Assembly: GCA_023091665.1 (NCBI GenBank)
Contig: JALJCQ010000004.1
Span: 806,001-870,000 of the forward strand
Direction: 5' to 3'
DNA from: Pythium myriotylum
Taxonomy: Eukaryota; Oomycota; Peronosporomycetes; Pythiales; Pythiaceae
Length of the DNA stretch: 64,000 bases
Each line of letters begins with the position of its first letter. Position 1 is the stretch's first letter. The position numbers and the translations under genes were made by a program. Of this stretch, positions 3,139-47,557 are shown piece by piece. The notes below the pieces were generated by a model. It was not told where the DNA came from. It was given only the letters and a program-made list of their open reading frames with translations, and searched no databases.

Positions 3139-5074
3139 ATGGCGGCCATGTACACCAAGATGACGGCGTCGGGCTCGTCGCTGATCGTGGCGCCGCGCAC
3201 GATCAGCAAGGAGCTCGAGGCCAAGATCTCGACGGCCATCGCGGGCGTGGTCGCCAAGCACGACCTGAGCAAGCTCACGACCAAGATGGTGCGCCAGTAC
3301 GTGGAGAAGGAGGTCCACGTGAGCCTCACCAACCACAAAGAGGTGCTCAAGCGCCTCATGCAGCAAGAGTTCCGCCGGATCAAAGCGGAAAAGGTGCGTC
3401 GTCTCGTCTGCGGGGTGAAGTCGTTTGCTCACGCGCAACACCACTCGGTCAGGCCGCCAAGAGACCCGTGCCCCAGCCGTGGAAGATCAAAGCTCGCCGC
3501 CAGAGCATGCTCAAGGGAATCAACTTTGTGTACGCGCTGCTTCGCGACCAGAAACCCCCGTCACTCGATCTCGCGCTCCACGCCATGCAAATGCTGTTCG
3601 ATATCAACGCCATTGAAGGGCCCGAGTTGGCCCAGGTCACCAGTACTTACATGCGCCTATTGGTCTCGGGTTGGCTCCAGCAGAGACCCACTACGTGGCA
3701 AGAAGGCAGCGTCCCAACGTCCGAGCAAGTGCGTAGCCACTGGGGAGAGAGTTTTTGTTATAGGGATCGAGTGGCTTACGATGCTCCATTCAACGTAGGC
3801 GCTCCAAGGCCTCGCAGAAATCTACATCGTCGAACGCATCGGCGCCGTCCATCCTCGTCGCGCTGAGATCCACGAATTCCTAGATCGCTCACCGGCGGTG
3901 TATACTGTAACCGACTTTTTAGGCTGGAACCCGCAAAACTCCCCGCCAGTCGCGACCGCTTCGTCGTCCACGTTCCGTCAGATGACGGAAGCCCTCCTCA
4001 AGTGCTGGTACGCGCACTCACTCCAAGTGTCTCTTGGGTGCTCTCTGGTCCAGGTTAGTGACGGACTCGAACAATTCTTTTCTCTTCTCTTGGCTGACGA
4101 GAGACTGTGCGCAGGTCTTGCAACACCTACCCAAGTTTTACCCTTACAAGAGCCCAACTGAACTTTCGCCCGCCGACTATCGGGACCAAATGCGGATGGT
4201 GACGACAATCGTGCTAGTTCTCACCAACTTTGGTAAATTGCGGTGCGAACCTGATCTGCTTCCGCACGAGTACTTTGTGCTGCGTCAGCACCTCGTCCAC
4301 CAAATTGTTCGTCAGGATATGGCAGCCATCAGTGAAATGCTGCGGGTGAGGGTTTCTTGTATCCATACCATCTTTATGCTCCTCTGATTAGTTTGCTGCG
4401 TATTCTAGGCTCTTCGATGCTTCGATGGTTCGGACAACTTGATGTCAGTTCGACGAGCAATGGCGATCATCATGCTGTCGCAGCAGCCAGACGGATCATG
4501 GAAGCCTCTGACCAACGGCGAGTCGGTGGATAACGACTCCCCGGACCATGTGTATCACACCACCATGAGCGCCGTTAGTGCGCTCGTAGAAGGCCGTTCA
4601 TTTGGATTTGCACCATCCATTCCGAGTGCCTGCACTCTCTTGGAGCTCAACCTCAATGCAGACCTACCTGCTGTTGTCCTGGAAGACGAGAAGCTAAAAA
4701 AGGCTGCGGCTCTCTCTGCCTCCACCACCGAGAACAGCCCAGCATCTCCTGGCAGTGACTCGACGAAGCCAGCGAGTGCTCCAAGCCCTCCCCGTCCAAA
4801 GATTACGCGTGCCGAATCTGTGGAGGAGTCCTTGGAGGACCAGGTGCGGTTCCACCAGGGCCTGCTGGAAAAGGCAGGAGACAATGTCAAGAACGTCTCG
4901 GCCGCTCTCGCCCAGCAAGTGCTCGCGACGCTCTCGGGCATGAAACTGAACGTGGACATCCTCAAGAACACTGGCATCGGCCGCACGATCAACAAACTAC
5001 GCAAGCACAGCGACGAGGACGTCGCCAAGAAGGCGACGCAGCTCGTCGCCAAGTGGAAGAAGGATCTGTTATGA
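3139..5074 (+). CDS. DEK_C plus TFIIS N-terminal (LW) domain nuclear protein
   Basis: Five exons keep frame: 3139-3393, 3453-3728, 3799-4053, 4115-4345 and 4409-5074, for 560 residues. The N-terminus (about 15-85, including KLTTKMVRQYVEKEVHVSL) looks like a DEK C-terminal winged-helix domain, a DNA-binding module. The middle (90-400) is all-helical and unrecognised. Residues about 445-520 are Ser/Pro-rich. The end (about 505-560) matches the TFIIS N-terminal helical bundle: TGIGRTINKLRKHS, then ATQLVAKWKKDLL. Such domains bind elongation-complex partners, so a role in transcription elongation or chromatin is inferred. The ATG at 3139 is preferred because the upstream in-frame start is a TTG. 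It is divergent from the C1-FDX-like gene. Confidence 0.72.
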
Positions 5075-6359: not shown

Positions 6360-8795
6360 CTACCACGGACTGATAGATGCGAGGACCTCTCTCAATGCGT
6401 CCCACGTGCCGCCACCCTGCTGTGTAGCATTATGTGATGCACCGTGCCCGTTATTGAACGATCCGTATGCTGCGTCATCATCCTCGGAGAGCAGCCCTTC
6501 TTCGAGATCCAAGGAGCTGCCAAACGATACTTGCGATTCGCTGCCTGATGACAGCATGCCGACGCTCTCGGATCTATTCGAGCGTGTCTCACGTTTCCTT
6601 CGTGCTCTGAGACCATCATTTGCAGCGCGGAAACCGCGTTCACGTGGACGGTTTGCAACGAAATATACAGACAGAAAGACGCAACCCAGCGCGACCCCGA
6701 AAGCGACAACGAGCTCGACACACATGATCACTGTCAACATCCGGTGATCCACAGGGAGGGGGTCAGGAGTCGGCGGTGACGTTATCGCTGGCAACAGAAT
6801 GTTAAGCAGCAGTCCTGCACTGAGAGAGGATCCTGCGTATCCATCTTCGAAAGTCCCGATTTTCTGACCAGACACAGACTTGAATGCAAGGGCGATGGTG
6901 CGATTCGCACCTATGTTGCTTTGACAAACCAGATCTCTCGTCTTGTTGCGGATATACATCCCAAGACCATTGAAACCGTTCTGCCGCGGTATCACACCAA
7001 CGTTCTGAGCAACCAACACTATGTCCGGGGAACGAGGAGAAACGTACCATCGAAAATCCTCGTTGGAGAAAGTAGTTGTAGTGAAGCATCGTGACCTGAT
7101 CATCTTCTGCAATGGAGCCGCATGGGAAGAAACCAGTTGGGTACTTGGCGCAGAAAAACTGGAATGTGTCGCTCGAGGGTAAGAAATGCGAGAGGATACC
7201 CATCATTTGAGGCTCGTGAAGCTTGACTCCAAAGGAGGGGATTACTCCACGCAACGAAGGTATTCTATTCTCTTCGTTGGTGTCATCGTTAAAGATCTAG
7301 TACAGCAAGATGTTAGGAGGTCGCCTTTTACTCCCCAAAGCTCGTTTCAGATGCCACCAAACCTGAGCTGACGCGTTCCACATTTGACCTCGAGTGGTTT
7401 CATTGCCAGTAATTGAATCTCGAAGTGAGCCCGCCAGCTTCGTGGCAGCATCAAGTTCGTGTAGCAGCTCTGCGGGTTCGAACTGAAACTTGGAGCACGC
7501 TGAAGACCGATCAACTAGAACTCGAGTGATGTCAACGAATGCGACGGTTGATCGAAGAGCTAATGTGTTGAACTCAAGATCAAAGACGTTCAATCTGCAA
7601 GGCTGCACATCCTCCTCGTCATTTCCGCTTTCAAAGGTGCTACCGCTGAAGCATGACGCCAAGTACATCATTGGCTCGTAGAAGTCTTGAATAGCATCCG
7701 CCGTTGGCCCTTCAAGAACCGCTCCCTGTGAGAATCGCAGCTTGCTGAGCTGAGGAATTTCTGTGACAATCTTCGTATAGTCTGTTCGGTTCTTCACTTT
7801 GCTGAGTTGATTCTTCCAATGACTCGAAAAGGGAGAAAATGTCTCCCACGGATGCTAAATTATTGTCATTGGTTGACGTTGTGTGAGAACCTCGAGTCGT
7901 GCTACGACTCCGCGCACAGACTAACCACCAACCTGAGCCGCAAGAAGCCCCGATTCTCCAGGTTTTTGTCGCGTATCGAAGATATGATGGTGCAGCTTTC
8001 GCAGCGTAGGGTAAATGCCGCACAAAAACTCGACTGCTTTCGTCGTGTGTGCCACGATGCCCATGGTTGACTCGTATGGAGACAAGCGGTACATCTGGAG
8101 AGCCACATCCGCAGCTATCGGGGGTGCCATCAACGACGACGTTGGCTCTCGCGTTCCTCTACTCTCAGCCTCACGGCTCCCCTCTGTGCTGCCATTCGAT
8201 ACTGTGCTGTCAGTGATGGTGTCGTTTGGATTGAGCCAGAATGCTGGACCAGGGTAGAACGTCTTGTCGGTCTCAAACCACCGAATCGAGGGATCCACCG
8301 ATGGCCCGTACACAATCAGCGGGAGGCTGCCGTCGTGGCGCTGGTACGACAGTATTCGCCTGTGGCATCGCGATCCATACAGTTAACAATGGGTATATCT
8401 CTTGGGGGTTTATCTCCATCGCGACGCACCGAAACTGCTTCGCCGCTCGGTCGAAGTCCACGTGGGCGATGGCCTGCGCCGCCAGCAACGCATCTGCCGT
8501 CTTCTACGAGCACGAGACCCGTCTCTACTCAGCCACCACGAGGAGCGACCATGTCGCCAGCGACGCGTACCAAGTGCTGGAACCCGACGAGCGCCGGGCT
8601 CCCGGGGGCGACGGCGCCGAGCTCGACGTCGAAGTTGTTGCTCAGGACGGCGTGCGCGTGAGCCACGAGCGCGTCCTCGTCGCAGAGAGGGGGCAGTACC
8701 GTCTCGGACACGCGAGAGAGCTGCGCGGCCATCGCGTCCATCGGCGCGACCCAGACGCTCATGGGCGAGATCTCCTGTTGAAGTCGACGGATCTC
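6360..8795 (-). CDS. Single-pass membrane protein, unknown function, N-terminus unresolved
   Basis: Six consecutive exons keep frame: 8571-8795 (5' end uncertain), 8381-8503, 7933-8340, 7363-7854, 7096-7296 and 6360-7058. Together they encode about 715 residues. The likely extracellular or lumenal part contains Asn-x-Ser/Thr sites, paired cysteines and a helical start (LKEIRRLQQEISPMSV). One strong membrane segment (VIMCVELVVAFGVALGCVFL) lies near the C-terminus. It is followed by a basic then acidic/Ser-rich cytoplasmic tail with possible dileucine/acidic signals (EEGLLSEDDD). I do not recognise the family. Exon 1 starts after an AG at 8796, with a stop codon a few codons upstream, so the true first exon is missing from the model or lost. 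The 3' end is convergent with the PhyH gene, 54 bp apart. Confidence 0.6.
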
Positions 8796-33275: not shown

Positions 33276-36200
33276 CGACTGCGTCTTGAACACCAAGCTT
33301 GGTGCGGAGCACGTCGAACTGGACCGCGGGGATCGGCTTGGTCATGATGTCGGCAAGCATGTCTTGGGTCGGGCAATACTGGAGAGACACTTGACCGTCC
33401 TCGACCTTCTCACGAACGAAGTGGTAGCGAATGTCGATGTGCTTGGTGCGCTTGTGGAACTCGGGGTTCTTGGCCAACGCGATCGCACCTTGGTTGTCTT
33501 CGTACACCGTGAGCGCTTGGTCGCTTGCAACTTCGCCGAGTTCGCACAGGAACGCCTTGAGCCACACGGCTTCTTGGATCGCTTCCGATAGAGCCATGTA
33601 CTCTGCTTCGGTCGAGGAGAGGGCGACAGTTCGCTGCTTCTTGCTGCGCCAGCTGATGCATCCACCGTTGAGCATGAACACGTAGCCGCTGGTGCTTCGA
33701 CGTGACTCGATGTCGCCAGCCCAGTCGGCGTCCGGAAGACTGGTCGGAGTAGCCGACCAGTCTTCCGTCGTTCGATGCCGAGAACTGCAGGCCGTACTTC
33801 TGAGTCGCTTGCAGATACCGGAGCACACGCTTGAGAGCTTGCTAGTGTGTTGGACACGGGTCCGCGGCGAACTGGCTGAGTGTGCCGACTGCCGCTGCGA
33901 GGTCTGGTCGAGTGCCGACCATGAGGTACATCAGTGCGCCGACTGCACTTCGGTACGGCACGTTCGTCATGGTGTCTTCGTGCTTGCAACCACCTTCACA
34001 CATGGCTTTGGTCAGCTTGAGTCCGGGGTCTTGAGGGGTCCTCACTGGTTTGCAGTCTTGCATGCCGAACTTGGTCAGGATCGACTGCAGGAACTTGGTC
34101 TGCCGCATGGTCACGTCGCCAGACTTGGGGTCTTGATCAACTTCCATGCCGAGGCAGTACTTGAGTTCGCCGAGGTCGGACATCTCGAAGCGTTCGCTGA
34201 GTGCACGCTTGGCCGCCGTCAGCAACTCGAGGCTGTTGCAGGCGAGGATGAGGTCGTCGACGTAGATCACGACGAAGATCATCGCTGAGCCGCTCCGCTT
34301 GACGTACACGCAGTGGTCCATCTCGCACTTGGTGAAGCCGACCTTGCGCATGAAGGCGTCGATGGTCTGGTTCCACATGCGTGACGACTGCTTGAGACCG
34401 TAGAGCGAGCGCTTGAGCTTGCACACGTAGTCCGGGTGGCGCTGGTCGACGAAGCCTTCGGGCTGCTTCATGTAGATTTCTTCGTCGAGGTTGCCGTTCA
34501 GGAACGCCGTCTTGACATCCATCTGATGGATCATGAGCTTGTGTCGAGCGGCGATGCTGAGGATGGTGCGGATCGACGTGAACTTGGCGACGGGTGCGAA
34601 TGTCTCTTCGAAGTCGATGCCGTACTTCTGCAGGAACCCCTTGGCAACGAGTCGAGCCTTGTACCGCTCGACGAGTCCTTCGGCGGTTTCCTTGACCTTG
34701 AACACCCACTTGCTGGTGATGGCCTTGCGTCCGGCTGGCAAAGGGACTAGGTCCCATGTCTCGTTCTTCTTGAGCGACTCGAGCTCGGAGTCGCAGGCTT
34801 CCTTCCAGTTGCTGGCGTCGTCGGATTCCATCGCCGACTTGAACGATGTCGGCAACTCTCCCCCTGAATTCACGACGAGAGCAAACGCTTCGAGATCGTA
34901 ATCTTGGTCTTCTCCCCCTTGTTCTTGCACGTCTTCGCCTTCTTCGTCTTCATCTTCTACGCCTTCCTCTTCGATCGACGTGAGCAGTGCAGACAGATCT
35001 CCGAGTGATGTCGTTGGACCTTGCGTGGGTGGTGGGGTCGCACCACTTGTGCGACCAACCCGTCCGTAGCGCTTCTCAACTGGCGGTTCAGCCAGGTTCT
35101 CGAGCGAGTGCGTGCGAGAGTGGCGCTTGAACCCTGGTGCGTAGTCGACATTCGGCTGCTGGGCCGATGCTGGTGCTGCTGGACGCTGCGACCGCTGGCC
35201 CTGTTGCCACTCCGGTCGCTCGTAGCTGCGCTGACTTGGTGCTGGTGAGGCTGGCTGCTCACCCATGTCTTCATCATCTTGATCTTCATCATCGCGGAAC
35301 TCGACGGACTTGCTCCAGGGTTCTTCGCGCTTGCCATCGTCGAACGTGTCTTCCATGAACTGCGCGTCTCGACTGATGACGATCCGACCGGTTGCGATTT
35401 CTTCGAACCGATACGCCTTCTCGTGGTCCGAGTAGCCGAGGAACCGACACAAGATGGCTCGGGCGTCGAACTTCGACCGCTTCTCCTTGGGCACGTGGAC
35501 GTACGCATGGCAGCCGAACACCTTGAAGTTGGCGAGCAAGGGCTTCTTCCCGTACCATTCTTCGTACGGCGACTTGTACAAGTCTTGAGCGCGGGTCGGA
35601 AGTCGGTTGCGAACTTCGACTGCAGTCATGACGGCTTCGCCCCAGTACTCGTCGGACAAGTTGGCATGGTGGAGCTTGCAACGACCACACTCACCGATGG
35701 TTCGGTTCATGCGCTCCGCCACACCGTTCAACTGAGGCGTGTATGGCGGCGTGACGTCGTGCTCGATGCCACGCTTGCGGCAGAACTTGGCAAGTTTGAC
35801 CGACTGGTACTCGCCGCCGCCGTCGGTTCGAAGCACCTTGACTCGACGACCGGTTTGGTTCTCGGCCCAGTTGACGAACTCGACGAACTTGTCGTAGACT
35901 TCGTCCTTGGACCGCATCAGGTACAGCTTGCACAGTCGAGACTTGTCGTCGGTGAAGGTGGCAAAGTACTTCATGCCGCCGAAAGTCGGAGTCTTCATGG
36001 GGCCGGCCACATCGCTGTACACGACGTCAAGCAGATTCGCAGACCGCTTGGTCGTGCCCGACTGGAACTTGACGCGAGTCAGCTTGCCGAGTGCACAGCC
36101 TTCACAGACCTCCCATTCCTGCACAGACCCGATATCGAGTCCGTCGGCGAGGTCCTTCTTGACGATGGCTTCGAGTCCGCTGAAGCCGATGTGACCGAGT

Positions 36201-37450
36201 CGGAGGTGCCACAGGTTCGACTTGGACATGGCGCGACCTCGTCTTGCACTGGCGGCGTGGGCTGCTTCAATCGACACTGGAGACATGTTGAGCTTGAACA
36301 GACCCTTGCCGATACGAGTGCCGATGGTCCTCTTGGCGCCCTTGAGAACGACGAAGCAACCGTCCTTGTCGAACGTCACGGGAGCAACGTCCTCCGTGAA
36401 TCTTCCGACCGAGAACAGGTTGCGGCTGAGCTTGGGGATATGCCACACGTTGGTGAGCAAACCCTTCTTGACACCGCTTGGAGTCTTCATCGACATGAGA
36501 ATGTCTCCCACGCCGACCGCTTGGACTGTGCCATCGTCGGCCAGATGCACGTCGACTGGGTCGATCTTCCTGTAGTTCATCATGAACTGCTTGGTTCGCG
36601 ACATGTGCTGAGTCGCACCCGAGTCGACCAACCACGCCGTGGATTGACTCGACTTGCCTTGGGTCTTCCCGACCGAGAACAGATACTCGCCGGGGTCTTC
36701 ATCTCGCGCAAGGTTGGCTCGCTGGAACCGTTGCCGAGGGTTGCTGTTTCCGTTGCCGTTGCCGCCGGAGTTGCCGTTGCCGTTGCCGTTGCCGTTGTCC
36801 TTGACACGCGAGTGGCACTCCGCGGCCCAATGACCGATCTTGCCGCAGTAGTTGCACGTGCCAGTCTTCTTGACTGCACGGCCCTTGGGCTTCGCGTCAC
36901 TTGTCATGAACGCTTGGCCAAGCGTGGCTCCGTCGCCACCTTGCTCCTTGCGCTTCATGTCTTCATGGAGCAGCCGAGACGTCACGAGTTCCCACGTGAG
37001 CGCGTCGACACGCGACTCCAACGCCGTGATGAGGAACTGGTACGACTCGCTGAGACTGCCGAGAAGCGTGATCACCAAGTCGTCTTCGCTGACCGGAGCG
37101 CCGACTGCGTCGAGTTGCTCCGCCAGGGTCTTGAGCTTGTTGATGTGCGTGAGCACATCGTCACCTTCTTCCATCATGGTCGTGAAGAAACGACGACGAA
37201 GAAAGAGCTTGTTGGCAAGGCTCTTCTTCTCGAAGTGTTCTTCCAGTCTTGACCATGCATCTTGCGCACCACTCGCCGACCGGACCAGCGGGAGCTGCGA
37301 GTCTTCCATCGCGAGACAGATCATCGCGAGCGCCTTGCGAGACTTCTTCTTGAAGAGGGCTCGATCTTCAACATGCTCGAGTTTGACCTCTCCACAGACA
37401 ACTTCCCAGACGTCGCGTTCTTCGAGCACCATCTGCATCTTGAACTCCAT
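33276..37450 (-). pseudogene. Copia Gag-Pol polyprotein, broken in RNase H
   Basis: The long frame 33,842-37,450 encodes 1,202 residues: gag, a zinc knuckle ([15 protein letters not shown], about 200), aspartic protease ([12 protein letters not shown]), GAG-pre-integrase ([10 protein letters not shown]), integrase with [16 protein letters not shown] and TDGGGEY, and Copia RT with KWVFKVKE and YVDDLILA. It then stops at a TAG where the sister copy has TGG (CPTHWQAL). The RNase H region continues in 33,276-33,841 but is frame-shifted by a 13-bp insertion at 33,733-33,745. At the N-terminus the natural ATG (MDST) is out of frame because of an A-run and a lost base near 37,445-37,480. The element is therefore non-functional. 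Confidence 0.88.
33733..33767. repeat. 13-bp inverted duplication inside Copia RNase H
   Basis: CGGAAGACTGGTC (33,733-33,745) is the exact reverse complement of GACCAGTCTTCCG (33,755-33,767), with a 9-bp spacer. The sister copy near 63,195 lacks the first arm. Confidence 0.92.
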
Positions 37451-37544
37451 GTGTGGAAGTTGGTTCCGCCGAACTTGTTTTTTTTATGCGGGCTGGGGTG
37501 GTCGAGTCCATGGCGAAGGCTGGGGAGGCGAAGTCGGTGGAGCC

Positions 37545-37905
37545 TTTCTGACAAAGAACTTCATTACGAACACACTGAGTTTGCCTATTGTGAGCGCTGC
37601 AAGATCAAGATCTACCTCACAAAAGATAACCACGACGTTGGTCATCACACCCTACGGCCATCTGGACGTGCTGTTCAACCATATTGATGAACAAGAGGAC
37701 GAAGAGAATCGTATCCTTGTTTGTAGTCGCATTGTGGTAAAGCGGCCGAGTTTTTTAGGGCACTAGACCGAGGTGGTAGGCAGAAACGCCGAGTAGTACC
37801 GTAGGAGCAGGGTTGGCAACGCATACATCGATACTCATTATTACAGGTTTTACGTCCGTCTCGCTAATGATGGTCAATTGGGCCTGTCAACGTTAAGACC
37901 CTTAA
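37545..37905. other. Flanking sequence between Copia and piggyBac elements
   Basis: Possible right part of the interrupted ORF: a plus-strand frame with KELHYEHTEFAYCERCKIK and NHDVGHH, which could form a small Cys/His cluster. It ends at about 37,687. The rest is AT-richer and has no gene. Confidence 0.35.
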
Positions 37906-37917
37906 CCCTTTCGTGGT
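37906..37917 (+). repeat. piggyBac left terminal inverted repeat
   Basis: CCCTTTCGTGGT directly after a TTAA. It is the exact reverse complement of the sequence at 47,111-47,122. Confidence 0.88.
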
Positions 37918-37973
37918 TGGAATTTCTGCAACAGGAATAGTATCAGTATAATGAAGTCAAGTATATTCTCTCC

Positions 37974-37998
37974 AGAAGGGAACAAATTGTTCCCTTCT
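37974..37998. repeat. Left subterminal palindrome
   Basis: A perfect 12-1-12 palindrome with arms starting AGAAGGG. An imperfect second copy lies at 38,080-38,104. The same palindrome is at 47,023-47,047 near the other end. Confidence 0.9.
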
Positions 37999-38568
37999 TG
38001 GTTTGTTGAACTTGCGGAGATATCTGATCTCACCAAAGGGAGAGAGCCGAAACTGACGGTTTCAAATCTCGCCCGCGCCAGAAGGGAACAATTTGTACCC
38101 TTCTGTATCAGTTCTTCTATTGGGCGAAAACAGAAACTTCACCAGGGAAATTGATCATTGGTCATAACACAGATACATTTCCGGCGCCTCTCGAAGTATT
38201 CAAGTAAAGTTTATGAAAGCAACGGTTTGTTTCGGGAACGATGCCATTTTCTTGAAGTGCTGCGGGTGAGCATCCCAAAGAGTCCCACACTTCTGTGGGC
38301 CGCTTCCTCGAGCGCTCAGCAAGTTTTGAGCCATTATCTAATGAAGTGATGAGAAGATATTGGCTCATAATTTGAGCTGGTGATGACGTTCCCAGATGAA
38401 GATGGCAAGTGCGTCCAGTAGCGCATCCGTACACGGCACGCCGACGTCGTAACGCAATGCAAGCGTGTCAATGTTTGGTGATCTGTTCGGTGCCGACGCA
38501 CTGGTGCGTTCGAGATCGATCAAACCATGACGGAAGTCTCGGCAAACCAATGTGCGCGGCATAATACA

Positions 38569-39741
38569 TTATACATGTGATGCTTGCGCACGAAACGCGT
38601 CCTTATAGTGTTGAGTTCTCTTGTACATGTACAGCGTAGATGTCGAGTTCGTGTACGTCACCTGGACCTTGATTGCTCCTGCGATCTCCCACATAGCGCA
38701 GAACACATCTGAACAGTGCTGACGATGACGAGGACACATCTTGGCCCCGAGAATGAGAAGCCTGAGTGCTGTGAGCTCGCAACAGACACGACGTAACGCA
38801 AGGTTGGAGCTCGCATCGAAGACATTATTGTGCGAGAAGATCACGGTGCTACGATGTACGATCCGAAGATCTAGCGTTCGGATGTCTCCCACGATAACTT
38901 GGACGTTCTGTAAAGCTTCAAACTCTGCTTTCGCTTCTTGTATGCGCGCTTTGCCTGCCTCTGCAACAGCAGCTTGCATTTCCACACCAATGGCTCGTCG
39001 TACACCAGCTTCTAAAGCCACCTGGGCGATCACATTGCCCACACCACTGCCAATGTCGAGAAAAACATCGTCGCTCGTCAACTCACAGGCACGAACGAGC
39101 TCACTTACATCTGTCACCGAGAGCTCTCCCACGTTTGTTGCCATCCGGCCAGCCTTCTGACGAACTACGCCGGCAGGAGTCGTCGCAAAGAGGCGTGTTG
39201 ATAATGCTTGTGCGCTCTCTGAAGTAGACGAACGACGACTTGAGCCGAGACAACTTACGTTTGCAAAACATGGCTCGGATGTGAGCGCCAAAATCGCAAG
39301 GTTGCTGCCGGTGGCCCGCACACAAATGTGTTCGATCGCGCTGGGGCTGGAACTGGTTTTCGATTGTGGCGATTGTTTGCTCTCTTGGTCCTGGATATCA
39401 CTCTTCTGCGCGCTGACGTGTGGATCGCTGGCGATCAAGCCGCTAATTTGACGTGCTCCACCGCTACTAACCAAGCGATGGTTTGAGAATGGAGGGCGAT
39501 TGCTTTTGTTCTTGCTCTTCATTGCACTTGGCTTCATAAAGAAGTGCTTGGGAAACGCACTGAGATGCTTCCCATGTGTAGTTCTGAGAGTCTTCATTCG
39601 TGCTCGGAGCTGCTCGTTCGTCTTCTTAGAGTACGCTATCGCGCCGGCGAGGGTAACCCACGAGACAGCCCCTCCTCTATCCTCGATGGCTTTTACACGC
39701 TGGACCAAATCTCGGTCTTCACGGTCAGAGAAGTCCGACAT
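38569..39741 (-). CDS. DOT1-like SAM-dependent methyltransferase (transposon cargo)
   Basis: An intronless ORF of 390 residues from ATG 39741 (an upstream TTG is ignored). The N-terminus is helical (SWVTLAGAIAYSKKTNEQLR). A Ser/Lys-rich linker follows to about 150. The catalytic part (about 215-350) shows DVFLDIGSGVGNVIAQVALE (SAM motif I), RRAIGVEMQAAV (acidic end of strand 2), and FSHNNVFDASSNLALRRV, which resembles the DOT1 VNNFAF motif that lines the active site. DOT1 enzymes methylate histone H3 Lys79 without a SET domain. The target here is unknown. It is the leftmost cargo gene in the piggyBac element. The frame is intact. Confidence 0.78.
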   Translation of the reverse strand: MSDFSDREDRDLVQRVKAIEDRGGAVSWVTLAGAIAYSKKTNEQLRARMKTLRTTHGKHLSAFPKHFFMKPSAMKSKNKSNRPPFSNHRLVSSGGARQISGLIASDPHVSAQKSDIQDQESKQSPQSKTSSSPSAIEHICVRATGSNLAILALTSEPCFANVSCLGSSRRSSTSESAQALSTRLFATTPAGVVRQKAGRMATNVGELSVTDVSELVRACELTSDDVFLDIGSGVGNVIAQVALEAGVRRAIGVEMQAAVAEAGKARIQEAKAEFEALQNVQVIVGDIRTLDLRIVHRSTVIFSHNNVFDASSNLALRRVCCELTALRLLILGAKMCPRHRQHCSDVFCAMWEIAGAIKVQVTYTNSTSTLYMYKRTQHYKDAFRAQASHV

Positions 39742-40149
39742 CGTACCAAGACTGCATGCCACGGGGTCAACCTTCAGAGCAGTCGTCAAAGCAAATGCAA
39801 GGTAGAAGAGGACACACCGTCATTGGTCCAAAACCCCTATCATAGATCTTGAAAAATGTATGCACTAAACAAAATCATTAATTATAGCCAATCAAGATAT
39901 TGAAGCACTTGGGCAAACCGGGCAAATGTCTTTGATTCACTATGTGTTGGGTCCAAGATGGGTTGGCGCTTGGAACGCCCTGGATTTACACCAACTGGAT
40001 TGGACAAAATGGCTGAGTGACTTGGCTCTCATCTCATCTCGTATTGTACTCCGAAATTGTATGCCAGCTCGCCGTTGGATCAACGGCTGCATCGGAATCG
40101 GATTCGGCATTCAAGAGGTCAGCACCAGTCTCCAAGTTGTTCTTCCGGA

Positions 40150-40770
40150 ATGAACGAGCCGCCAGCCATGCGCCAGATCGCCCACGATGAGTGCGTGGAA
40201 ATGATCGATTACTACTGAGGGCTGAGGGAGACCTACGCGGTCCACTTCAGCTACGTGATCATCATGCGCGGGATGCCAGGCTGCGGTAAGTCGATCTTCG
40301 CTGACTGCGTCCGTCTGTACGCGAGAGCGAGGGGTCTGGGCGTGGTCATTTGTCGAGCTGATGACTTCTTCGAGACCGACGACGGATATCGCTGGTATCG
40401 AGAAGGCATTAGTCAAGCGCATGCTGAGTGCTTCCAGAAGTTTGCGAGTGCGCTTCGCCGTCACGTCGATGTGATCATCATCGACAACACCAATATTCGT
40501 GTGCCAGAGTTTGATCGCTACGTGAGCGCTGCTGAAGCCGCGAACCACATCTACGACATCGTGAATTTCAGGTGCAGTGATTTGAACGAAGCGATGTGGA
40601 TAAGCGAGAGAGGCGAGCACAGCGTTCCACCAGAAGTGATCGCACACCGATTTAACGATTTCCAGCAAGCCAATCTCCACCCTGGTCTCGCCTTCGGGCA
40701 TAAGCGTGAAGGGGTTATGCGGCTCAACAGCACCTGGGTCGAGCCGGTCGACTTTGGCTTCCGTGGATGA
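40150..40770 (+). CDS. P-loop polynucleotide-kinase-like ATPase (cargo)
   Basis: The Walker A MRGMPGCGKSIFADCVRLYA is followed by RADDFFETDDGYRW, VDVIIIDNTNIRVPEFDRYV and VPPEVIAHRFNDFQQ. This is the AAA_33/N4BP2-type kinase fold, in which TNT/DNTN and the downstream Arg lid are typical. A frame open from ATG 40150 (MNEPPAMRQIAHDECVEMID) runs into a TGA at 40216-40218 and continues in frame. Either translation starts at ATG 40264 (168 residues) or the N-terminus carries a nonsense codon. The only plus-strand gene in the piggyBac element. Function could be RNA/DNA 5'-end phosphorylation, by inference from the family. Confidence 0.68.
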
Positions 40771-40943
40771 ACTTGATGGGCGAGTGAGCGAGACCAAGTG
40801 AAACACAGCAAGAGGAAAGCTTAAGTTTGGAATATCACGCCACCCTTTTGTTTGCTACAATGCCACTGCTGCGCACTCGCAATCTTTCGTTGCTAATAAT
40901 CCATTCAATTCCCTGAACGCAAACAGCGATCATGCACGTACAC

Positions 40944-41666
40944 CTACTTCTTGATTCGATAGCCGCGGCTGTACGTGGTGTAGAGCTCTCCATGCTTGGG
41001 GACTCGCTTGATGATCTGGATATAGATGTGCTTACCAAGTTTGGTGATAGCACAGTTCTTCCTTGGGTATCCCCGTGCTCGCTCTTAACGATTCACGAAG
41101 CTTCCCAGGCCCAGGCCCCTCACTGGTTTTCTTATGCACATCAAATACTTGATCTTGCCGCGACTTTGCAGTTTGATCGCATATGTAGGGTCGGATGGAT
41201 CTTCATCAACGACGTACCCGGAACAACGAGTCACAATGTCGCCTGGCTCCAAATCCTCCTCCGCAAATACTCCGATTCCTGCATCAGCGACCAGCGACCG
41301 ACCATAAAAGACGATCGGATTTTCGGCACCGTCCACGCCCCGTGTATCCGCATCACGCGCTGTAAACAGTGGTCGAGACTCAACTACAACCGTCCTGGTG
41401 CTTGATCGCGTTCGCTCGGTTTCGCTGGTGCCGTCTGCAGAAGCACTCGGGGACTTGGCTTGCTTCCTCTCTCGATGTTCTCGCTCATATCTTCGCTGTC
41501 GAGCTCGCCGCTCGTCCCCTGTGAGTTCTTTCTTCACGGTCACGCGCTGAGAATGAGTCCTCATCGCATGCTTCCGAACCGTTTGTAAGTTCGGCGATGT
41601 GAACTCGCACACCGGGCAGTGAAAGTGTCCTGCCTTGTCTCGCTCGACGATGAGCTTCGATGCCAT
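40944..41666 (-). pseudogene. C2H2 zinc finger plus SET-domain protein (cargo, nonsense codon)
   Basis: From ATG 41666, the N-terminus has a C2H2 finger (HCPVCEFTSPNLQTVRKHAM, then RTH), a basic stretch, and a SET-like domain: AGIGVFAEEDLEPGDIVTRC, SGYVVDEDP, IRKPVRGLGLGSFVNR. A TAA at 41,085-41,087 interrupts the frame. It then continues with RGYPRKNCAITKLG and ELYTTYSRGYRI to a TAG at 40,944. The second half supplies the NC and terminal Tyr/Gly elements expected after the SET insert. Without the TAA the protein would be 240 residues. SET domains methylate lysines, often on histones. It is probably inactive in this copy. Confidence 0.7.
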
Positions 41667-41880
41667 CTTGATGCCGTCCTGCAGTTGTCACTTGGCCATG
41701 CAAGGTAAAGGAGTACATCGATTTAATTGGCCGAAAAGATCTCTCTATGCCCAGTTTTGGTCAATGAGCAGCGCGATATATGCTATCGTATTCGTCAATA
41801 CTCAAATCATGTATAACAGGAGCATGACTTCGTCAACTAATGCATTACGTCCCGATTCCATGTCACCATATCTACTGAAA

Positions 41881-43502
41881 TTAAGCTACCATTTGCAAAG
41901 CGGGCGTTCTACTTCGATTGAGTATGAAAATAGTCATGCGCAAGGCGAGCATTTTACATGTATTGAGTACACAGAGAGTGAACAAACGAACGCTACGTGG
42001 AATATCAGCACATGAACTTGTCGAACAGAACAAATTGCGCCGTTCTCGCCATCTCGTCATGTCGTTCACGAACTTCTCCGAGTCACAAAGATACCCGGCG
42101 ATTTCAATGTGTTGCTGGACGGTGAAACTCGCATTCACATCGCGATTTACCACAGAGGAGACCTTTCGCATCAGCGCGACCAGTTTCTCATCAACAATGG
42201 TAAATGCATCTCGCAGCGCAGCAACATATTTACAATCGCGCAGCTCAGCGTCAATGTCTGCAAGTTTGGCACGTAGATTTTGCATTGCTTCGGCGCCTTG
42301 TATCTTTGCCCGTTCTAGAGCCGCTTGATGTCGCCTTTCTTGCTCCTCCAACTGGGTGGCAAGCGTCCTCTCGAACTGCGCTCTCATCATCTCGGCTTGC
42401 GCCTGCTTCTCGGACGCCACTACTGTAGCCAGGTTCGCATTTTGCTTCTTCATGAGGCTGCTCTTGTGATTCACCTTCTCATGGAGCTGTTGATTCGCGT
42501 GGCGAAGTGACTCCTGTGCCTTCACCATCTCATCGAAGTTTTGCCGAAGTCCCATGCACTCTTGGAGGCGTGCATCTAGCATCTGTGTAGTCTCCAGAAG
42601 CTTGTCCTCCAGAGCACTCTTCGCTCGCAAAGCGCCATCCAGCTGCTGCTCCAGAACACGATGTTGTTGAATCTGCTCCTCTAACGTGGTCTTGAGCTGG
42701 GTTGTCTGCAGCACTGACGAGTTGTGCTCTTCGTTTGCTCGCCGAAGTTGATCCAGCTCCATTTTTTGCGTCTGTACCACGACCGTCTCCTTCTGTAACT
42801 GGGTCTTCAATTGGCTTATGTTCTCATCCATTTCGCTCGAAGAGCGCGCAAAAGCTTGCATCTCGACCTTCAGCTTGGCGTTCTCGACCATCAGCTTAGC
42901 GTTCTCGACCATCAGCTTAGCGTTCTCGACCTTCAGCTGGGCGTTCTCGACATTCAGCTTGGCGTTCTCGTCCAGGAGCTTCGCGTTGTCGGCACTAACG
43001 GCGCTCATGCTGCGCTCTGTGCTTTCCGATTCGTCTTCGAGCAGTGAGATTTCATCGACGGCTTTTGCGAGTTCTACATCCATCCTTGACTTTTCAGGTA
43101 TTGGAGCAGACTGTGGTTGATTTACCCTCGGATCCACAAGTTCAGTCGAGGTCATATTTGCGACTGGAGCGGTTTGGTCAGTTAATGAGCTGTCGATGAT
43201 GCTTGGTGGTGAGGACTGTGCGACGCCGAGAAGAAGCGAGGCGGCGAGGTCAGTGTCGGCCTGCTGCACAAAACCTTGGACTGCAGCTCTCTTCGACATC
43301 TTCGCTTCGTGGGCTCGTCGAGCTGATCGAAGCCGCTTCTTCATCCGTTCAACCATGGAGTTAAGCGCGGTCTTTGTGATGCCCGGAACCTGCGTCAACA
43401 GCTCCTTTTGGTTCACATTATGTCCTTTTGCCAGAGCTTCCGCAACAGCTTTCATAACCAGATCATGCGTGAGATTATGCGCCGCATAACGCGGGGGCTT
43501 CA

Positions 43503-43503
<1 letters not shown>
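41881..43503 (-). CDS. Coiled-coil protein with N-terminal helical DNA-binding-like region (cargo)
   Basis: ATG 43503, 540 residues. The first 70 residues (HDLVMKAVAEALAKGHNVNQ ... TKTALNSMVERMKKRLRSAR) look like a small helix-turn-helix followed by a basic region. A Ser/Pro linker follows. From about 170 to 430 there is a long coiled coil with exact 7-residue repeats of the type ENAKLxV (about 195-235). The leucine and asparagine spacing is that of a leucine zipper. The start codon sits next to an (TC)40 repeat. Function unknown; a dimeric DNA-binding or tethering role is a guess. Confidence 0.65.

Positions 43504-43508
<5 letters not shown>

Positions 43509-43588
<80 letters not shown>
43509..43588. 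repeat. (TC)40 microsatellite
   Basis: 80 bp of uninterrupted TC dinucleotides just upstream of the ATG at 43503 (minus strand). Confidence 0.97.
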
Positions 43589-43591
<3 letters not shown>

Positions 43592-43950
43592 CAATAAAAT
43601 CAAGTATCATGAGAGATCATTTGATCCAATGATAACACTTACATCGTGTATCAACCAATGGAGTGAGTGTACCGAATTGTCTTGCCACACTTTTGACAAC
43701 ACAAGCGGGCATTCATGTAGTGTTCAGTATGCTTAGAATTCCATAGATGATACCCTGTCATCTTCCAGGTCAAAGCTCTCAAACGACAACGATCTAACCG
43801 TACTGGTAGGTGGATCTGGCGATGCTGCCGTGAACTGCACAATAGCCCTTGCCACCGCGTTCTTCTTGTCGATGTAGAACTGGTTGGACTTGTTGATGTT
43901 TCCTCGAGAAGAAAAGAGCCCTGCTGGCGTGTAACTTGGTGATACTTCTG

Positions 43951-46759
43951 TCAGCAGGTGAGGTCGTTAGCGACGCACCCACACAGTCCGTTTGCAGGGA
44001 ACACCTTCTTGCACAAACACACACTGTGTTGGCTGCAGAAGTCAGTCTGTTGCGTGGGCGATCGTCCTTCGAACCGGCTCACGACGCAGACACGTTTCTT
44101 GCGAGCCTTGCCAAAGATCTGGTGTGATGCGATTGCAACACATGTTGAGAATGTCCTTGGCGATCCCATCGAAGGACTTGACCTTCCGCGTACATTTGTT
44201 GGTGTCGGAGGATTAAGCCGCTCTGAAGTTGCCCCGCCAACATCGTCGTAGAGCATGAACTCGCTGCCTGGAGCGTGCTGCCAGTCACCGCTGATGAGAT
44301 CCTTGATGAGACTGACCAAGAATACCCGGTGCGCGTCCCGTTGGGAGTTGCGTTGCACGAGTTGTCTTGTCAGGAATGCATTCACACGTGCGATGTCGAT
44401 CAACGCAAGCGCCAATTTCTTGAACCACTTCTTGTAGGAATGGCCGTCTGCAAGAGAAAATCGAGCACGGAGTTGGTCATGTCTGTCGACGCCTTGCATG
44501 TACTTATTGTACTTCTTGGTGGCTTTTGGTGCGGGGGATGTTTGCTTCACGGCCTTGACCATTCGTTGGACCGTCGTCATCTCAGATAAGTCAGCGTTTG
44601 ACACGATTGTGACGATGTTGCCGTCACACCACGAAGCGGCAACCATTTGATGCTCTACGGAGACACCCTGGAGGCTTGTTCCACGGAGCACTTCGCTGCC
44701 CTCTGGAGTCGCACTGTTTTGAGATGATCCTTCTGCAGCTTCGGTCAAGGCAGCATTAGCAGCACTCGAGGTTGACGAACCTCGAGCCTCGGTGACGGCG
44801 ACCGATTTTTTGTTGGGATCGGCGAGGATCACGTGACGCGGGAAATGCTTGCTGGTCCTTCGCACTGTGCCTCAACCGTACAATCCCTTCACTCGCAACG
44901 CATCGAGGAGCTGAACGGACGTGTAGTAGTTGTCGCAGTTGATGATACGCTTCGTGTAGTAGAACGGAAGAACGACTTCGAGCACTTTCGCCGACTCCTG
45001 GAAATCGTCAGCAAACCGGCGAGCGTTGCTTTCGCTCGTGATGCCGTCAAGTATGTGCTCCATCTCAGAAGCACAGTGCAGTCGAAAGTTCAGCGCAATC
45101 CACGACGTTGAGCAACAGGCCATGTAGAACCGAAAGTGGTACTTGCCACCAGGCTTTGTCGGGTTGAACATGATCAGGTCTCGTCCGAACTTGGATCGAC
45201 ACGCAACGCTGGCTTCATCGACAGCGATATTTTGTCCGACGTGCACGTACTTGGTTCCATTCAGCTTGAGCAGGTTCAGTAGCGGGCGAATTCGTACAGC
45301 AGCGTCAGCCTTCAGCTCGTCTCGAGTGAGCGAGACGGGATTACGAAAACAGAACGCCTTCCGCAGCTTCTTGAATCTGTTGAATCGCATATCCTTGTCG
45401 AGACTGGAGTTACCCGTCTGGAAGATACTGCTCTCAGGCTGCTCTCCCCAGTAGTTCGCCATCTCGCCTTTTTTTACCAACCCCATGTAAAAGAGAATAC
45501 CGAGGAAGCGCATGAGCTCAGACAATGAGAACCCGGGGATGTTGAGCTCGTGCGCATGATCATTCGTCTCGCCCAGCACTTGCTTCCAATAGTACATTGG
45601 AATGTACGCAAAGAAGCTCGAGCAGGCAGAGTGCTCGAAGAGGTGCCGATAATCTGGCTTCAAGTACGTTTTGGTCGATCTATCGGGATGTTCGTAGCGA
45701 TCACTTGGCGCTTCCATTGACACCTCGGGTAGGAAACGCATGCTCTTAATCCTCTCAACCTCCTTGACACTGACAGGCAAGTCGCTCCGGGGCTCAAAGA
45801 TGGAAGCTTCCTGTAAGGCGGTGAGATCGACATCCTCGTTGATCGCTACCGATGGATCGGGCCGGCACAGTTGCATCCATTTCGGGTTGCCTCCGTTCTT
45901 CTGTAGCTCCTCGACTTCGTAGACACTGCAACTCGTGGTATTGGGAGCTTGACTGGATTGAAGCTCACTGGGAGATTGCTGGTCGGCGGTGTTGGACGAG
46001 CAGGGGGCGTTGGATGAGTCAGAGGTGTTGCCTTGGGAGTACGTGGCTGGCGTTGCGCGCGTGGTTTTGTTGGTGGTTCGGGCTCGTAGTCCGACTCGTC
46101 GGGCGAGGTTGGTGGCTCAAAGTCGATGTACCCCTCATCGCGTGGTGTTGGTGACTCATCGTCCGAGTCGCCGCGCGGTTCTGTTGTCTCTGCTTGAGTC
46201 ACAGCTGCCGGGCGCTTGCGAGAAGATCGCGATGGTGGAGGCGCCGGTAGTGTCGGGGGCTGTTGTGTCGGAGCCGTCGGCGGCAGCTGCGTCGAGGCAA
46301 TCTCTACAGCAGGGAAACGGTCAACATGAATCGATAAACTCGTGTTCTCACCCCGTATGTCCCACCTCCATCACTCAAAAGCCCTTGGCGTGCTGATTGG
46401 ATTGGTGTATCATCGAACAAGGCTTGTGAGGCTTGCGAGGCTTGCTCCCCAACAGATCGAGATGCGTCAGCGGCTCTGCTCGCGATACTCGGATTCTTCG
46501 AACGACGCGGCTTCTTTGGTGGTGGGTCTGTGACTGCGTGCGCTGCCTCGTACGCCATCAAAGCTGGGCAGTGCAGGTTAGATGCAGGTTCTCACGTCGG
46601 CTTCAGCCAGCCCTTCCACTTGACTCTGTATTGCAGTTCGCCAGACGTTGTTATCTTCTTGGCAAGAATAGCTTCTACCTCATACTCTTCGTCATCTGCC
46701 TCACTTTCTTCATGCTTGGTCCCCTCCACGTTTGTCCGCCGCTTCCGTCGTTTCCCCAT
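43951..46759 (-). pseudogene. Chromodomain-piggyBac transposase gene with internal stop
   Basis: On the minus strand, ATG 46759 begins a basic/acidic stretch and a chromodomain (YEVEAILAKK, then LQYRVKWKGW). A Pro/Ser/Glu linker in several pieces follows (46,561-45,870), where a likely intron and a frame change occur. The piggyBac DDE part (45,876-43,951) has the DDD residues in place: IAVDEASVACRSKFG, IINCDNYYTSVQ and MQGVDRHDQLRARFS. A Cys/His-rich end (CSQHSVCLCKKVF ... CGCVANDLTC) matches the family's C-terminal cross-brace finger. A TGA at 44,872-44,874 sits where piggyBac proteins usually have Cys in a YxCGTVR motif. Reading continues in frame after it. Chromodomains bind methylated histone tails, as in chromoviral integrases, so targeted insertion is plausible. 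Confidence 0.82.
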
Positions 46760-47022
46760 GCTTCGCGCGGCGAGGCGTACGGTCCTGAGCTCGTGCACGC
46801 TGTTTTGCGTTCTTCCCTCAATTATGCGCGCGCCATTTCGAACGGAAGCTTCGAACGTGAAACCCTCTCAGAGTCGCTGAAATATCGGATAGCTTCCGAC
46901 GAAGATTCCATGCTTCAAGAAATAAACGTGCGAAGATACTACTCTTATCTGCCCATCATTGATAGCTTCTGAAGAAACGGGTCCAGAACAAAAGTGGACT
47001 ACGAAAAGAGTGGGCGCGCCCC

Positions 47023-47047
47023 AGAAGGGAACAAATTGTTCCCTTCT
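47023..47047. repeat. Right subterminal palindrome
   Basis: The same 25-bp perfect palindrome as at 37,974-37,998. A half-copy (AGAAGGGC) lies at 47,086. Confidence 0.9.
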
Positions 47048-47110
47048 GGGGCACTTAGAGACACCCACTTTTTAAAAAACACCCCAGAAGGGCAAAAAAG
47101 TGTACCATTT

Positions 47111-47122
47111 ACCACGAAAGGG
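47111..47122 (-). repeat. piggyBac right terminal inverted repeat
   Basis: ACCACGAAAGGG followed by TTAA (47,123-47,126). It is the exact inverse of the left end. Confidence 0.88.
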
Positions 47123-47557
47123 TTAACTCGCACATACATCAACTAACGTCAACGTTACAGTTTCAGTAACTAACTACAATAACTACACAACGACAATGAG
47201 ATATTTCGTCAAGATCAGTCGCAATCTTTCCCGCCTGTCTGATGTTCAATTCCAAACATCCACAATTGGAGCCTACAATTTGCAGGTCTTCGCACTACAT
47301 CATCTCCACATGCAATCAAGCGGTCTAAGTGTCCCGCAGAGCGACGAATTCGCCCCGCGTATCTGCCGCGCACGCCAGGGGATAGTCGGTCACTGTGGCG
47401 AATCGAGTGGTCAACTCTACTTGATTTCCCGGGTTCTTAGAGTTCGCGAAGATAACTTCCAACGCACGTCGATCTCCAAGCAAGGACGCGAAAGTCGACA
47501 TGACATCTCGCGTCGCTTCCTGGGAGCACCCCCGCATTCCACAAATCGCCCTCAAGA

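What the first reader, a model, noticed from the sequence alone, without database searches (positions are those of the whole stretch)
37906..47122. piggyBac-type transposon carrying chromatin and nucleic-acid enzymes
Matching 12-bp ends, flanking TTAA and paired subterminal palindromes enclose a piggyBac transposase plus DOT1-like, SET, P-loop kinase and coiled-coil genes. Known piggyBac elements are usually small with one gene. An element with two different classes of methyltransferase and a chromodomain transposase suggests it reads and writes chromatin at its own insertion site. An alternative is a chance accumulation of nested genes between the two ends.
Basis: partly seen in the sequence, partly recalled or inferred. 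Interest (0 to 1): 0.9.

Follow-up and report, generated by a model that had tools for sequence, protein, structure and literature searches.

The report
piggyBac transposons carrying a histone methyltransferase
This is a real 9.2-kb jumping gene in an oomycete genome that carries, besides its own moving enzyme, a histone-methyltransferase-type enzyme and a small kinase; a second, younger family in the same genome carries the same genes, so the cargo looks like part of the element, although what it does is not yet tested.

Summary
Window 37906-47122 is flanked by TTAA, has exact 12-bp inverted ends and paired subterminal palindromes, and encloses a broken chromodomain piggyBac transposase, a DOT1-family methyltransferase, an AAA_33 kinase, a coiled-coil protein and a weakly SET-like zinc-finger protein. 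Five paralogous empty sites with one TTAA show that the 9,217 bp inserted as a unit. Two more large copies carry all cargo genes, in part. The strongest new evidence is a second family (F2, mostly 9.6 kb, transposase 57% identical, ends sharing only 8 bp): 9 copies with both ends, all in TTAA, all with transposase, DOT1 and kinase sequence; one at least has all three frames open. Gene order differs between families while the set stays. DOT1 identity is firm (Pfam, PDB profile hits, fold); its N-terminus looks Myb/SANT-like. SET stays unproven. Best mechanism, inferred: the element marks its own chromatin with H3K79-type methylation and so alters host silencing. 'Reads and writes chromatin' is untested. 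Of 58 piggyBac loci in this genome 42 show no such cargo within 12 kb (at least 3 of them truncated F2). New variant of a known kind.

The parts
37906..47122 (.). whole element, F1 copy A, 9,217 bp
37902..37905 (.). target-site TTAA, left
   Evidence: sequence; empty sites hold a single TTAA
37906..37917 (+). 12-bp terminal inverted repeat, left
37974..37998 (.). subterminal palindrome 1
   Evidence: kept in the one MITE scanned and visible in others
38080..38104 (.). subterminal palindrome 2
38569..39741 (-). DOT1-family methyltransferase with Myb/SANT-like N-terminal region, open frame 390 aa
   Evidence: Pfam DOT1 E 3.4e-18; relatives and F2 fold
40219..40770 (+). AAA_33 P-loop kinase; a stop stands just upstream in this copy, the frame is open for 249 aa in copy C
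40944..41666 (-). C2H2-like zinc finger plus SET-like region; in-frame stop in this copy
   Evidence: weak
41881..43503 (-). coiled-coil protein (by eye), 540 aa open frame; copies B and C hold 120-122 bp more here
43951..46759 (-). chromodomain piggyBac transposase, broken (in-frame stops, internal deletion, segments in two frames)
47023..47047 (.). subterminal palindrome 3
47111..47122 (-). 12-bp terminal inverted repeat, right
47123..47126 (.). target-site TTAA, right

Best explanation
Shown: this is a dead copy of a multi-gene piggyBac-superfamily transposon (F1) that moved as one 9.2-kb unit into a TTAA. F1 and a younger relative (F2) carry the same accessory genes: a DOT1-family methyltransferase with a Myb/SANT-like N-terminus, an AAA_33 kinase and a coiled-coil protein, next to a transposase with an HP1-type chromodomain. 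Inferred: the accessory proteins serve the element, not the host. The most likely scheme is that an element protein (transposase, the SANT-like region of the DOT1 protein, or the coiled-coil protein) binds the family-specific subterminal repeats; the chromodomain tethers the complex to methylated-H3 chromatin; and the DOT1 enzyme methylates nucleosomes (H3K79 by homology) on the element, changing how strongly the host silences it. My estimates: unit of transposition with stable cargo 0.97; active nucleosome methyltransferase 0.7; acts on the element's own chromatin 0.4. The kinase's role is unassigned; phosphorylation of nucleic-acid ends is the leading guess.
Confidence: 0.5

Rival explanations
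1. The element-encoded DOT1 puts a repressive mark on the element (self-limitation or stealth). In the brown alga Ectocarpus, also a stramenopile, H3K79me2 marks silenced transposons, so the enzyme may dampen rather than protect expression.
For: Passages of PMC11541908 and PMC12477816: H3K79me2 on intact TEs and on a silent viral insert.
Against: No H3K79 map for this organism; F2 copies are young and numerous (the nine two-ended ones are 97-100% identical to the C27:42789 copy in matched pieces), which fits an element that was not strongly shut down.
Confidence: 0.2
2. Repair aid: H3K79 methylation and a polynucleotide-kinase-like enzyme favour rejoining of DNA ends after excision or insertion, so the cargo raises transposition success rather than altering silencing.
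For: Kinase fold matches include mammalian PNKP and C. thermocellum PNK, and sequence relatives include N4BP2-like proteins; a link of H3K79 methylation to break repair is recalled, not looked up.
Against: piggyBac leaves TTAA overhangs that need no DNA synthesis for repair (PMC7341134 section 28); the kinase substrate is unknown: PFKFB structures rank higher and PSTK is the only sequence hit in the PDB.
Confidence: 0.15
3. Passenger genes: host DOT1 and kinase genes were captured once and are carried without serving the element.
For: A host-like DOT1 gene at C25 shares a C-x-RHR motif but shows no SANT-like part; dN/dS near 1 in several comparisons of recent copies.
Against: Same gene set in two families with 57%-identical transposases and different order; open frames in F2; 88% and 86% identity of F2 DOT1 to two metagenome proteins.
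Confidence: 0.2
4. Chance nesting of unrelated genes between two unrelated ends.
For: Other repeats are inserted in several copies.
Against: Empty sites; three large F1 and nine two-ended F2 cargo copies.
Confidence: 0.01

Closest known systems
piggyBac superfamily DNA transposons of oomycetes (Phytophthora)
   Same: DDE_Tnp_1_7 transposase, TTAA target, short inverted ends; relatives named from many Phytophthora species
   Different: about 9 kb, several genes, with DOT1 methyltransferase and kinase; 42 of 58 piggyBac loci in this genome show neither within 12 kb
P. megakarya piggyBac-associated inverted gene blocks (PMC7341134, section 28 read)
   Same: several hypothetical-protein families associated with PiggyBac-like TEs and inverted repeats
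   Different: the main text has 0 hits for methyltransferase and DOT1; may be related elements, supplements not seen
Teratorn, piggyBac fused to a herpesvirus (PMC6431247 passages)
   Same: large piggyBac with extra genes
   Different: 41-182 kb with herpesvirus genes; none seen here
VANDAL/VANC anti-silencing system of Arabidopsis (PMC10398659 abstract)
   Same: TE protein acts on family-specific, fast-diverging noncoding repeats of its own family (works-like, hypothetical here)
   Different: Arabidopsis TEs, loss of silent marks, no histone methyltransferase named in the abstract
Sola1-1_Ec32 ParB plus DNA-methyltransferase accessory protein (PMC12477816 passage)
   Same: TE-encoded enzyme proposed to modify its own TE epigenetically
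   Different: DNA methyltransferase, not a histone enzyme; other superfamily
DOT1/KMT4 H3K79 methyltransferases
   Same: catalytic fold and motifs
   Different: transposon-borne, Myb/SANT-like N-terminus, CPRH motif

Membership tests
piggyBac superfamily | TTAA target-site duplication | tested here: met
   5 of 5 fetched empty sites with one TTAA; 9 of 9 two-ended F2 copies in TTAA
piggyBac superfamily | DDE_Tnp_1_7 transposase | tested here: met
   Pfam above cut-off in window and F2; piggyBat and piggyBac structures hit by F2
piggyBac superfamily | short terminal inverted repeats | tested here: met
   12 bp exact in F1; F2 CCCTTTCGCGAACG, with one mismatch at one left end
piggyBac superfamily | seamless cut-and-paste excision | not testable with these tools
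   needs an excision assay
DOT1/KMT4 | DOT1 domain above curated cut-off | tested here: met
   66.4 bits against 23; F2 54.8 bits
DOT1/KMT4 | DOT1 fold | tested here: met
   F2 protein: (mean pLDDT 76; linker 70-139 disordered)
DOT1/KMT4 | H3K79 methylation of nucleosomes | not testable with these tools
   needs an enzyme assay
SET-domain methyltransferase | SET domain above cut-off | tested here: inconclusive
   16.8 bits against 22.4 in a piece of copy B only; no PDB SET hit for copy C
HP1-type chromodomain | Chromo domain above cut-off | tested here: met
   30.4 bits against 25.1 in window (half domain before the stop); 57.5 in F2
AAA_33 / polynucleotide-kinase-like | AAA_33 above cut-off | tested here: met
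   50.3 (window) and 65.7 (F2) bits against 27
AAA_33 / polynucleotide-kinase-like | polynucleotide 5' kinase activity | not testable with these tools
   fold matches also include PFKFB and PSTK
Teratorn | herpesvirus gene complement | tested here: not met
   Pfam scan of 9 element ORFs shows no herpesvirus family; size 9.2 kb
VANC | VANC homologue | not tested
   analogy only

The most novel reading that the evidence does not exclude
A transposon lineage that carries its own chromatin read-and-write system: a chromodomain transposase that reads H3 methylation and a SANT-DOT1 enzyme, addressed by family-specific subterminal repeats, that writes H3K79 methylation on the element, co-evolving with those repeats as families diverge.
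Probability: 0.3. Interest if true: 0.92.

Novelty: new variant of a known kind. Interest (0 to 1): 0.74.

Why it matters
Transposons are usually seen as passive targets of histone-based silencing. A transposon family with a conserved histone-methyltransferase-type gene would let one test directly whether mobile elements write their own chromatin state. Relatives of the transposase come from oomycetes, which are stramenopiles, and another stramenopile marks silent TEs with H3K79me2, so enzyme class and mark may coincide. The young F2 copies make the question testable.

Tried and rejected
Chance nesting: rejected (empty sites and repeated gene set). SET as a second firm methyltransferase: not upheld. 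dN/dS among copies as proof of selection: weak. Homology of the F1 and F2 coiled-coil proteins: not proven; one search finds the F1 protein in F1 copies and otherwise only weak hits on C9. F2 palindromes tested singly: not significant at one end. Viral contigs: 69 pattern matches, none a DOT1 relative. A capsid-like look of the ORF beside the C27 F2 copy came from recall; Pfam, PHROGs and PDB sequence searches gave nothing, so I drop it. Other oomycete genomes were not searched (no relatives held; genome contigs is prokaryotic and was not scanned). Metagenome contigs were not fetched (cap stated as 0; not tried), so DOT1-kinase linkage there rests on equal contig lengths. Protein searches scored only the 7992-7994 candidates sharing most words, and the genome searches scored 40 of 49, 40 of 161 and 40 of 57 candidates, so counts are lower bounds. 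Absence from print: searches listed no paper that I recognised as describing a piggyBac with DOT1; Repbase and most subscription papers were not searched. VIA-align rows cover residues 139-353 only, so the Myb/SANT call rests on three predicted helices and sub-threshold Pfam hits in 4 of 14 members.

Full report
What is there. The window lies at G000:C4:806001-870000 of a 58.7-Mb genome in 55 contigs. The stretch 37906-47122 begins and ends with the same 12 bp in inverted orientation, each outside edge being TTAA. A palindrome stands at 69 and 175 bp from the left end and 76 bp from the right end; one loose internal match lies at element position 4117. Pfam recognises a DDE_Tnp_1_7 transposase, half a chromodomain, DOT1 and AAA_33. 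A 540-aa frame in the middle looks coiled-coil by eye. The SET-like gene shows a C2H2-like zinc finger and only a sub-threshold SET match, in a piece of copy B.

State of the window copy. It is dead as a transposon: the transposase has in-frame stops, its segments lie in two frames, and it misses about 235 bp that copies B and C keep as coding sequence. The SET-like frame holds a stop, and so does the kinase frame just upstream of the domain; copy C's kinase frame is open for 249 aa. DOT1 is open for 390 aa.

It moved as a unit. The joined flanks were sought in the same genome (40 matches, 40 of 57 candidates scored). Five of these cross the junction. I fetched all five and all five carry one TTAA where the window has the element. 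Only about 20-30 bp of the left flank are shared, because the repeat that received the element begins there; the right side is shared over 50 to 190 bp.

Other F1 copies. One search lists 73 matches (40 of 49 candidates scored, a lower bound). Copy B on C12 (778479-790828) has both ends and both TTAAs and parts of all cargo genes, but is split and partly inverted around an insertion that looks Copia-like by eye. Copy C on C15 (2776191-2786305) has the left end and all cargo genes in part; its right end is cut by other sequence. Fragments lie on C24, C30, C33, C23 and C15. End-only derivatives of about 332 bp (MITEs; 10 near-complete) and two longer ones of 827 and 1327 bp carry neither transposase nor cargo matched by F1; the one MITE scanned keeps both palindromes.

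A second family, F2. Its transposase is 57% identical over 340 aa. Its ends read TTAA-CCCTTTCGCGAACG, sharing 8 bp with F1. Two genome searches show 16 loci (40 of 161 candidates scored, 27 of 27): 9 with both ends (C4:2463052, C7:495229, C13:3065849, C27:107126, C27:42789, C30:446395, C30:2287744, C12:430200, C9:1529148) and 7 partial. Six of the nine are 9,622-9,638 bp with both TTAAs; the others are 8,813, 8,990 and 11,409 bp, the last because of two repeat insertions. All 9 are flanked by TTAA. All 9 hold transposase, DOT1 and kinase sequence, some with deletions. The C13 copy has open frames of 1104 aa (transposase), 355 aa (DOT1) and 427 aa (a doubled kinase). F2 also has a 394-aa frame that looks coiled-coil.

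Same set, different order. With the DOT1 side first, F1 reads DOT1(-), kinase(+), SET-like(-), coiled-coil(-), transposase(-); F2, turned round, reads kinase(+), DOT1(-), coiled-coil(+), transposase(+). F2 has a repeated 25-bp quasi-palindrome of another sequence at 13 and 74 bp from one end and 64 and 190 bp from the other, and nowhere else in the copy scanned (mean 0.02 matches in 50 shuffles; the motif was taken from F2's own right end). Singly, these are not clearly palindromic. So the arrangement is similar and the sequence has changed.

How specific is the cargo? One search gives 99 piggyBac-domain matches. Merged, they make 58 loci: 14 have both a DOT1-like and a kinase match within 12 kb, 1 DOT1 only, 1 kinase only, 42 neither. 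One of the 14 (C7:427847) is a different transposase near a partial F2 piece, and at least three of the 42 (C14:1436 kb, C12:2633 kb, C3:1843 kb) are truncated F2 loci. Of 21 DOT1-like loci 16 have the kinase within 4 kb. A DOT1 gene at C25 looks like a host gene: strong Pfam match, related C-x-RHR motif, no SANT-like part or transposon ends seen in the 4 kb fetched. At C23 an unlike chromodomain transposase (34-39% to F2) adjoins F2-like kinase and right-end DNA (92-95% identical), which suggests exchange of modules.

Elsewhere. The DOT1 profile found 12 proteins at E up to 1e-3; the three with organism names are Phytophthora. Four of the 12 have longest contigs of the same length as four kinase hits (3573, 3151, 3113, 2615). 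I infer, but did not see, that the two genes share those contigs. The transposase search found 82 proteins; those with organism names are Phytophthora, with one Aphanomyces.

What the kinase is. AAA_33 above cut-off in both families; sequence relatives include N4BP2-like proteins; the only PDB sequence hits are PSTK; fold matches include PFKFB (top), PNKP, bacterial PNK and PSTK. Substrate unknown.

How it may work. Inferred steps: (i) an element protein binds the subterminal repeats; (ii) the chromodomain holds the complex at methylated-H3 chromatin; (iii) DOT1 methylates nucleosomes on the element; (iv) host silencing changes. None of the four was tested. Direction is open: in Ectocarpus H3K79me2 is tied to silenced TEs (passages of PMC11541908 and PMC12477816), while in other groups it accompanies active chromatin (recalled). 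The closest published ideas seen are a TE-encoded DNA methyltransferase that may modify its own TE (PMC12477816, passage) and the VANC anti-silencing proteins (PMC10398659, abstract). Among piggyBac elements, Teratorn (PMC6431247, passages) and a DEDDh-nuclease accessory (PMC3627910, passage) are known. P. megakarya has piggyBac-associated gene blocks of hypothetical proteins (PMC7341134, section 28 read), which may include such elements.

Against this reading. Copies within the genome show weak constraint: dN/dS 0.38-1.15 for F1 cargo, 0.53-2.06 for the F1 transposase, and 0.42-1.99 for F2 cargo. Cargo is absent near most piggyBac loci. The SET-like gene was found only in F1 copies. No expression data were available.

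Verdict. It is a new variant of a known kind.

Noticed in passing
window 33842-37483 (-): Long frame just left of the element that looks like a Copia-type retrotransposon by eye; Copia-like sequence also seems to interrupt copy B.
   Followed up: no
L020:3-1289 (C27:41502-42788): 429-aa open frame of unknown family directly beside an F2 insertion; no Pfam, PHROGs or PDB sequence match.
   Followed up: partly
L060 and L047 (C23:65000-74200): Chromodomain transposase of another lineage joined to F2-like kinase and right end: possible module swap between piggyBac families.
   Followed up: partly
L023:4878-6335 (C17:3088877-3090334): A third transposase lineage with three chromodomain-like repeats (by eye) and broken frames; a decayed DOT1-like piece lies about 10 kb away.
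   Followed up: partly
L059:1716-2438 (C25:696715-697437): Host-like DOT1 gene with a C-x-RHR motif similar to the transposon enzymes; possible relative of the donor.
   Followed up: partly
L025:5955 (C9:1537954): An F2 copy and an F1-type MITE lie end to end and share one TTAA.
   Followed up: no
window 43503-43588: (TC)43 simple repeat beside the start of the coiled-coil gene.
   Followed up: no
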